A stretch of DNA of 64,000 nt from an uncultured Eubacteriales bacterium (GTDB lineage Bacteria; Bacillota; Clostridia; Lachnospirales; Anaerotignaceae): contig CATJUP010000101.1 of the NCBI GenBank assembly GCA_949743655.1, positions 1 through 64,000 on the forward strand, given 5' to 3'. Position 1 is the first letter of the stretch. Each line of letters begins with the position of its first letter. The position numbers were made by a program, and so were the translations under genes. This document shows, piece after piece, positions 9,532-9,709 of this stretch. The notes beneath the pieces are model-generated. The model saw only the letters and a list, made by a program, of their open reading frames with translations, made no database searches and was not told the DNA's origin.

Positions 9532-9709
9532 TAACTTCCTATAATAATAATTATCGGAAGTAAATTAACTTAAAATTTGAAAAAATATATAAAAAATTTA
9601 TAAAAAATAGCTTAATTATAAATTTTTTTTGACGATATGATTATTAGAAAGGCTAATTGAAGGCTAAAAATACCGTTTTACTTCCGATAATTATTATTAT
9701 AGGAAGTTA
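9532..9709. repeat. Perfect 33-bp inverted repeats flanking 112 bp; candidate invertible promoter element
   Basis: TAACTTCCTATAATAATAATTATCGGAAGTAAA (9532-9564) and its exact reverse complement (9677-9709). Confidence 0.85.
9665..9690 (+). promoter_or_regulatory. Candidate sigma-28/SigD-like promoter spanning into the right IR arm
   Basis: TAAA(9665-9668)-N14-TCCGATAA(9683-9690), compared with TAAA-N14-16-GCCGATAT. Confidence 0.4.

What the first reader, a model, noticed from the sequence alone, without database searches (positions are those of the whole stretch)
9532..9709. Candidate invertible promoter switch controlling csrA and the giant flagellin
Seen: two perfect 33-bp inverted repeats flank 112 bp of AT-rich non-coding DNA, ending 76 bp upstream of the csrA start. 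Flagellin is the next gene on the same strand. Each arm is itself an imperfect dyad (TAACTTCC...GGAAGTAA), as expected for a recombinase core site. Two strong terminators (9715-9741, 9758-9785) isolate csrA from the upstream gene, so its promoter should lie in 9457-9714, in or next to the invertible DNA. Known: Clostridioides difficile has IR-flanked invertible promoters, including the flagellar switch upstream of flgB, flipped by a tyrosine recombinase. Inference: this is a phase-variation switch on a CsrA-flagellin locus rather than on an early flagellar operon. No recombinase gene is in the window.
Basis: partly seen in the sequence, partly recalled or inferred. Interest (0 to 1): 0.85.

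Follow-up and report, generated by a model that had tools for sequence, protein, structure and literature searches.

The report
Invertible promoter before csrA-flagellin operon
A gut bacterium carries a small flippable DNA segment holding a flagellar promoter in front of a regulator gene and a giant flagellin gene; related copies point both ways and a matching DNA-flipping enzyme is in the genome, so the cell can probably switch this flagellin on and off at random.

Summary
In detail: perfect 33-bp inverted repeats (9532-9564, 9677-9709) flank 112 bp of AT-rich DNA, 75 bp upstream of a short csrA paralog that is followed by a 750-aa flagellin. It is not a MITE. In genomes of the same family, csrA paralogs carry this element only where one particular tyrosine recombinase is also encoded (6 of 7 loci, against 0 of 8 elsewhere). 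In two relatives the recombinase gene adjoins the element; in the window's genome its ortholog is on contig C107. Each repeat is a Xer-like site (11-bp half-site, 6-bp centre, 11-bp half-site). The spacer carries a sigma-D (sigma-28) promoter motif: perfect in Lachnospiraceae B68, where it faces csrA at one locus and away at two; degenerate in the window, facing away (OFF). A third element in the window's genome (contig C87) has the opposite spacer orientation. Relatives have no sigma-D promoter between csrA and flagellin, so the invertible promoter probably drives a csrA-flagellin operon. All flagellin leaders examined have a hairpin presenting GGA, a likely CsrA site. The logic resembles Salmonella hin-fljBA; the parts differ. 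Both orientations at one locus were not observed, because no reads were available. New variant of a known kind.

The parts
9532..9564 (+). csrA-proximal inverted repeat arm containing recombination site ACTTCCTATAA-TAATAA-TTATCGGAAGT
   Evidence: perfect match to the reverse complement of 9677-9709; site pattern found 5 times in the genome, only at three homologous elements
9677..9709 (-). distal inverted repeat arm, same site in opposite direction
9565..9676 (.). invertible spacer, 112 bp, 83% AT
   Evidence: homologous spacers in C111 (same orientation), C87 (opposite orientation, contig end), G019 and G045
9612..9638 (+). predicted sigma-D promoter TTAA-N15-GACGATAT, pointing away from csrA (OFF)
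   Evidence: 2 mismatches to TAAA-N15-GCCGATAT, in the same alignment columns as perfect motifs in G019
9565..9593 (+). weaker sigma-A-like candidate TTAACT-N17-TATAAA, also pointing away from csrA
   Evidence: sequence inspection; TTGACC in C111 and TTGACT in C87; not conserved in G019 or G045
9271..9456 (-). csrA paralog, 61 aa, GTG start
   Evidence: PF02599 E 6e-16; differs from the canonical fliW-linked csrA on contig C106
9463..9474 (-). AUACAGGGAGGU over the csrA ribosome-binding site: candidate CsrA site (autoregulation)
   Evidence: sequence; similar AUACAAGGAGGU in C111 and G019 C3/C16
6576..8828 (-). giant flagellin, 750 aa, predicted second gene of the switched operon
   Evidence: PF00669/PF00700; csrA-flagellin order also in G019 x3, G045 C8, and fixed-promoter relatives
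8860..8882 (-). flagellin leader hairpin with GGA in the loop: candidate CsrA site 1
   Evidence: 0 of 60 shuffles as stable; counterparts in all 8 flagellin leaders examined
8836..8842 (-). flagellin Shine-Dalgarno AAGGAGG: candidate CsrA site 2
   Evidence: arrangement like C. difficile fliC and B. subtilis hag (PMC8523840)
9715..9741 (.). bidirectional terminator next to the distal arm; would insulate the element on both sides
   Evidence: perfect 13-bp dyad with A-run and T-run
9758..9785 (.). second bidirectional terminator

Best explanation
The element is a site-specific inversion switch. A dedicated XerC/D-like tyrosine recombinase, whose gene is on contig C107 in this genome, recombines the two dif-like arms and flips the 112-bp spacer. 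The spacer carries a flagellar sigma-D promoter. In the ON orientation it transcribes the csrA paralog and then the giant flagellin as one operon. In the OFF orientation, as in this assembly, it points into the bidirectional terminators and both genes are silent. CsrA made in the ON state would bind GGA sites in flagellin leaders, tuning its own operon and possibly repressing other flagellins in trans, as FljA does in Salmonella. Shown by sequence: the repeats, site architecture, promoter motif, opposite orientations at homologous loci, recombinase co-occurrence and adjacency, gene order, and leader hairpins. Inferred: inversion at this locus, recombinase-site pairing, promoter activity, operon structure, and CsrA binding.
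For: Family-wide (58 genomes), orthologs of the C107 recombinase at E<1e-60 occur only in G000, G019, G021 and G045. csrA paralogs have the element at 6 of 7 loci in recombinase-bearing genomes and at 0 of 8 in G033-G036 (Fisher p=0.001). In G045 C8 and G019 C7 the recombinase gene is divergent and next to the element; the G045 protein is 72% identical to C107. The site pattern occurs 5, 7 and 2 times in G000, G019 and G045, only at these elements, with zero control matches there. Order-wide, genomes with two or more sites are 5 of 17 recombinase-positive against 2 of 378 negative (p=1.6e-6). The 6-bp centre is identical in both arms of every locus although it differs between loci (TAATAA, ACAGAA, TCAGAA), and arm differences avoid it, as strand exchange requires. 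A perfect TAAA-N15-GCCGATAT faces csrA in G019 C7 and away in G019 C3 and C16, and the spacers align best inverted. In the window's genome C87 matches the inverted junction 62/63 against 48/63 uninverted. No sigma-D motif lies between csrA and flagellin in G019 or G045, while the flagellin without a module, G019 C2, has its own fixed one.
Against: No reads or second strain show both orientations at one locus; the contrast is between paralogous loci. C87 ends inside the element, so its downstream gene is unseen. The window's sigma-D motif has 2 mismatches (shuffle p=0.03) and the C111 motif has 3 (p=0.17). The csrA-flagellin gap is 442 bp here against 112-145 bp in relatives, so an additional flagellin promoter is possible here. 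The recombinase is unlinked in this genome, other tyrosine recombinases exist, and G021 has the recombinase but no site was found in its 77%-complete assembly. Counts of related genomes are not fully independent.
Confidence: 0.75

Rival explanations
1. The element inverts but switches only csrA. The flagellin has its own promoter in the 442-bp gap, so csrA ON lowers flagellin translation and csrA OFF permits it.
For: The gap is long in the window; weak sigma-A-like matches exist on the minus strand at 9088-9060 and 8917-8889; the C111 element controls a csrA with no flagellin behind it.
Against: In G019 and G045 the gap is 112-145 bp with no sigma-D motif, and the gene order is conserved even in fixed-promoter relatives. 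The sigma-A-like matches are at background level (6 found, 4.9 expected).
Confidence: 0.15
2. The recombination is carried out by another enzyme, for example housekeeping XerD (C70) or the XerS-like protein (C159), acting on dif-like sites, rather than by the C107 recombinase.
For: The sites have the 11-6-11 Xer layout; XerD (C70) passes its NCBIfam cut-off.
Against: Housekeeping Xer proteins are general, yet in this family sites at csrA elements occur only where the C107-type recombinase occurs, and that gene adjoins the element in two genomes.
Confidence: 0.07
3. Static element: a dispersed MITE-like repeat or an immobile regulatory palindrome, no longer or never inverting.
For: All complete copies in the window's genome (C101, C111) are in the same orientation; three copies exist.
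Against: Complete copies sit at csrA paralogs, not at unrelated sites; the element includes a conserved promoter motif; homologous copies occur in both orientations; arm centres stay matched within each locus.
Confidence: 0.08

Closest known systems
Salmonella hin / fljBA flagellar phase variation (own knowledge; history in PMC11868660)
   Same: An invertible promoter switches an operon holding a flagellin and a post-transcriptional regulator of flagellin.
   Different: Tyrosine instead of serine recombinase; recombinase gene outside the segment; CsrA instead of FljA; regulator gene first; several modules per genome.
Clostridioides difficile flg switch (RecV), PMC7446863
   Same: Short inverted-repeat segment, tyrosine recombinase, flagellar output, Clostridia.
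   Different: The C. difficile segment lies in the flgB 5' UTR, has no functional promoter and acts through Rho; here the segment carries a predicted sigma-D promoter and controls csrA-flagellin.
HsdS-shuffling tyrosine recombinases of phase-variable type I restriction systems (e.g. pneumococcal PsrA, PMC7096588)
   Same: The C107-type recombinase family includes genes sitting between inverted hsdS genes in G374 and G393; the site half ACTTCTCATAA and its centre resemble the flagellin-switch arms.
   Different: Here the recombinase and site serve a promoter switch; no hsdS gene is near the element or near C107. Relation to PsrA itself was not tested.
csrA-flagellin operons with fixed sigma-D promoter in relatives G033-G036
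   Same: Same csrA paralog directly before a flagellin (gene order read for G034 and G035).
   Different: No inverted repeats and no C107-type recombinase; where found, the sigma-D motif faces csrA permanently.

Membership tests
Invertible-promoter (inverton) phase switch | Inverted repeats flanking the segment | tested here: met
   perfect 33-bp arms
Invertible-promoter (inverton) phase switch | Promoter inside the segment facing the gene in one orientation | tested here: met
   by motif only: sigma-D motif at the same alignment columns in five spacers, perfect in two of the spacer types; activity not tested
Invertible-promoter (inverton) phase switch | Cognate site-specific recombinase | tested here: met
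   by association: co-occurrence and adjacency; catalysis not tested
Invertible-promoter (inverton) phase switch | Both orientations at the same locus in a population | not testable with these tools
   no reads; opposite orientations seen only among homologous loci
Hin-type flagellar switch | Serine invertase encoded in the invertible segment | tested here: not met
   112-bp non-coding segment; candidate is a tyrosine recombinase elsewhere
C. difficile flg switch | Invertible segment within a 5' UTR, downstream of the promoter and without one of its own | tested here: not met
   by motif: sigma-D promoter lies inside the segment; definition from PMC7446863
XerC/XerD and dif chromosome resolution | Recombinase passes the XerC or XerD equivalog cut-off | tested here: not met
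   C107 scores 107 and 94 bits against cut-offs 335 and 330
HsdS-shuffling recombinase locus | Recombinase next to inverted hsdS genes | tested here: not met
   C107 neighbours are a hydrogenase-like and an L,D-transpeptidase-like gene (my reading of the translations); hsdS adjacency is found for relatives G374 and G393
MITE | Copies at unrelated genomic sites | tested here: not met
   both complete copies precede csrA paralogs; C87 is truncated

The most novel reading that the evidence does not exclude
The switch is a closed circuit: CsrA made from ON modules binds the conserved hairpin over the recombinase's ribosome-binding site (GAAAG-GAGGT-CTTTC) and so sets the inversion rate, letting several csrA-flagellin modules in one cell influence each other's state. 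The hairpin is conserved with compensatory changes, but it also occurs in HsdS-type recombinases, which argues for a more general role.
Probability: 0.1. Interest if true: 0.85.

Novelty: new variant of a known kind. Interest (0 to 1): 0.62.

Why it matters
Flagellins of gut Lachnospiraceae-type bacteria are prominent immune antigens (own knowledge). A multi-copy, recombinase-driven on/off switch on giant flagellins, coupled to a translational regulator in the same operon, would be an independent invention of the Salmonella fljBA logic in commensals, with a recombinase type otherwise seen beside restriction-specificity genes. It makes concrete predictions (site, enzyme, promoter, OFF state) that can be checked in existing metagenome reads.

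Tried and rejected
MITE or dispersed repeat: rejected, because both complete copies lie before csrA paralogs and carry the promoter motif. Sigma-A promoter in the spacer (TTRACY-N17-TATAAA): conserved only within the window's genome, so ranked below sigma-D. BLAST hits of the spacer in other genomes of the genus: short AT-rich matches without arms, taken as chance. G019 C160: an assembly fragment identical to C3, not an extra copy. Viral contigs: no copy of the arm and no csrA paralog. C. difficile flg switch as model: rejected on its published mechanism. Literature searches combining csrA, flagellin, invertible, phase variation and Lachnospiraceae found no description of this switch; the library holds only open-licence papers.

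Full report
Observation. The window has perfect 33-bp inverted repeats at 9532-9564 and 9677-9709 around a 112-bp, 83% AT spacer. In 20 shuffles of the window no perfect inverted repeat exceeded 15 bp. On the minus strand the order is: a glycosyltransferase-4 gene (9848-10885), two bidirectional terminators, the element, a 61-aa csrA (9271-9456) and a 750-aa flagellin (6576-8828).

More copies. The window's genome (2.04 Mb, 192 contigs, about 91% complete) has two more elements. C111:15062-15295 precedes a second short csrA paralog in the same relative orientation; that csrA has lost Arg6 and has no flagellin behind it. C87:10079-10133 is a contig end: the same terminator-side flank and arm are followed by the spacer end that in the window lies next to csrA. 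It matches the computed inverted junction at 62 of 63 positions, against 48 of 63 for the uninverted one. The genome's canonical csrA is elsewhere, on C106, beside a gene I read as fliW.

Relatives. A genome scan with the csrA paralog found Lachnospiraceae bacterium B68 (G019) and MAG ABMPRH_125_0 (G045). The element-bearing csrA genes there precede flagellins. G019 has three such modules, two OFF and one ON by promoter direction. G045 C8 has one, OFF. Relatives G033-G036 have csrA paralogs with no inverted repeat; in G034 and G035 the coordinates show a flagellin next.

Recombinase. G045 C8 and G019 C7 carry a tyrosine recombinase gene divergent from csrA immediately beside the element. Its ortholog in the window's genome is on C107, 72% identical to the G045 protein. 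Within the family of 58 genomes it occurs only in G000, G019, G021 and G045. It scores far below the XerC and XerD cut-offs but has the integrase domains. Homologs are abundant in public protein collections, and some sit between inverted hsdS genes with a similar site. It therefore appears related to the HsdS-shuffling kind, here serving a promoter; any direction of descent is inference.

Site. Arms reduce to ACTTCnnATAA-N6-TTATnnGAAGT. The site is confined to these elements: 5 sites in G000, 7 in G019, 2 in G045, none in G021, G034 or G035, control zero. Across 395 genomes of the order single matches are at background level, but two or more sites occur in 5 of 17 recombinase-positive and 2 of 378 negative genomes. 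Every locus has identical centres in its two arms although centres differ between loci. The layout resembles Firmicutes dif sites as I remember them; that is a lead, not a test.

Promoter. Aligned spacers share one block, TWAA-N15-KNCGATAY. It is a perfect TAAA-N15-GCCGATAT in G019 C7, pointing at csrA, and in G019 C3 and C16, pointing away; 0 of 2000 shuffles matched it in either spacer type. In the window it is TTAA-N15-GACGATAT at 9612-9638 on the plus strand, pointing away from csrA (p=0.03). C111 has 3 mismatches (p=0.17). One csrA paralog in each of G033-G036 has the same motif facing csrA at about -122 to -137 with no repeats around it. So inversion would connect or disconnect a flagellar sigma-D promoter.

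Operon. Between csrA and flagellin in G019 and G045 C8 there are 112-145 bp and no sigma-D motif. The G019 flagellin without a csrA module has its own (TAAT-N15-GCCGATAT at -141) and no site or csrA paralog. In the window the gap is 442 bp, so co-transcription is less certain there.

CsrA targets. All eight flagellin leaders examined have a stem-loop presenting GGA; at most 2 of 60 shuffles were as stable. A second GGA lies in the Shine-Dalgarno sequence. This is the two-site layout reported for B. subtilis hag and predicted for C. difficile fliC (PMC8523840). Several csrA leaders carry AUACARGGAGGU, suggesting autoregulation. CsrA binding is inferred.

Mechanism and standing. The best reading is a recombinase-driven invertible sigma-D promoter before a csrA-flagellin operon, currently OFF in the window, with CsrA as a co-expressed translational brake. 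The logic matches Salmonella hin-fljBA; the parts do not. It differs from the C. difficile flg switch, which acts in the 5' UTR without a promoter. In open-licence literature the csrA gene is described in motility loci of Roseburia and Eubacterium with sigma-28 control of fliC, and a text search of that paper showed no invertible element (PMC3720852). I found no report of this switch. The missing evidence is both orientations at one locus in reads.

Noticed in passing
L094 7105-7137 (G000 C107) and leaders in alignment A4: The recombinase mRNA leader forms an 11-bp hairpin (core GAAAG-GAGGT-CTTTC) over the Shine-Dalgarno sequence, conserved in 8 genomes with 3 pairs changed on both sides and 98.8% of cells paired. 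It also occurs in HsdS-type recombinases, so it may be a general expression brake.
   Followed up: partly
G183 C31 4461/4566 and C93 3589/3705; G307 C51 36/141: In another family the related site CTTCTCATARTTTATATTATCGGAAG occurs as direct repeats 105-116 bp apart, which would excise rather than invert; no C107-type recombinase passed the cut-off in G183 or G307.
   Followed up: no
window 9233, 12125, 12231, 19163, 46843, 46949, 51281: A dispersed repeat around GTTCTTTCGCTTCCTTTCTTTCAAGAAAGGAAG occurs 7 times in the window, twice as pairs 106 bp apart; one copy lies in the csrA-flagellin gap.
   Followed up: no
L002 1771-1953 (G000 C111): The second csrA paralog has isoleucine at position 6, where the others have an arginine thought to contact RNA, no flagellin behind it, and the weakest sigma-D motif: possibly decaying.
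   Followed up: partly
G019 C2:253232 and G045 C34:46230: Flagellins without a csrA module also carry strong GGA hairpins in their leaders; they would be the trans targets if the switch works like fljBA. The G045 one had no sigma-D motif within 700 bp at 2 mismatches or fewer.
   Followed up: partly
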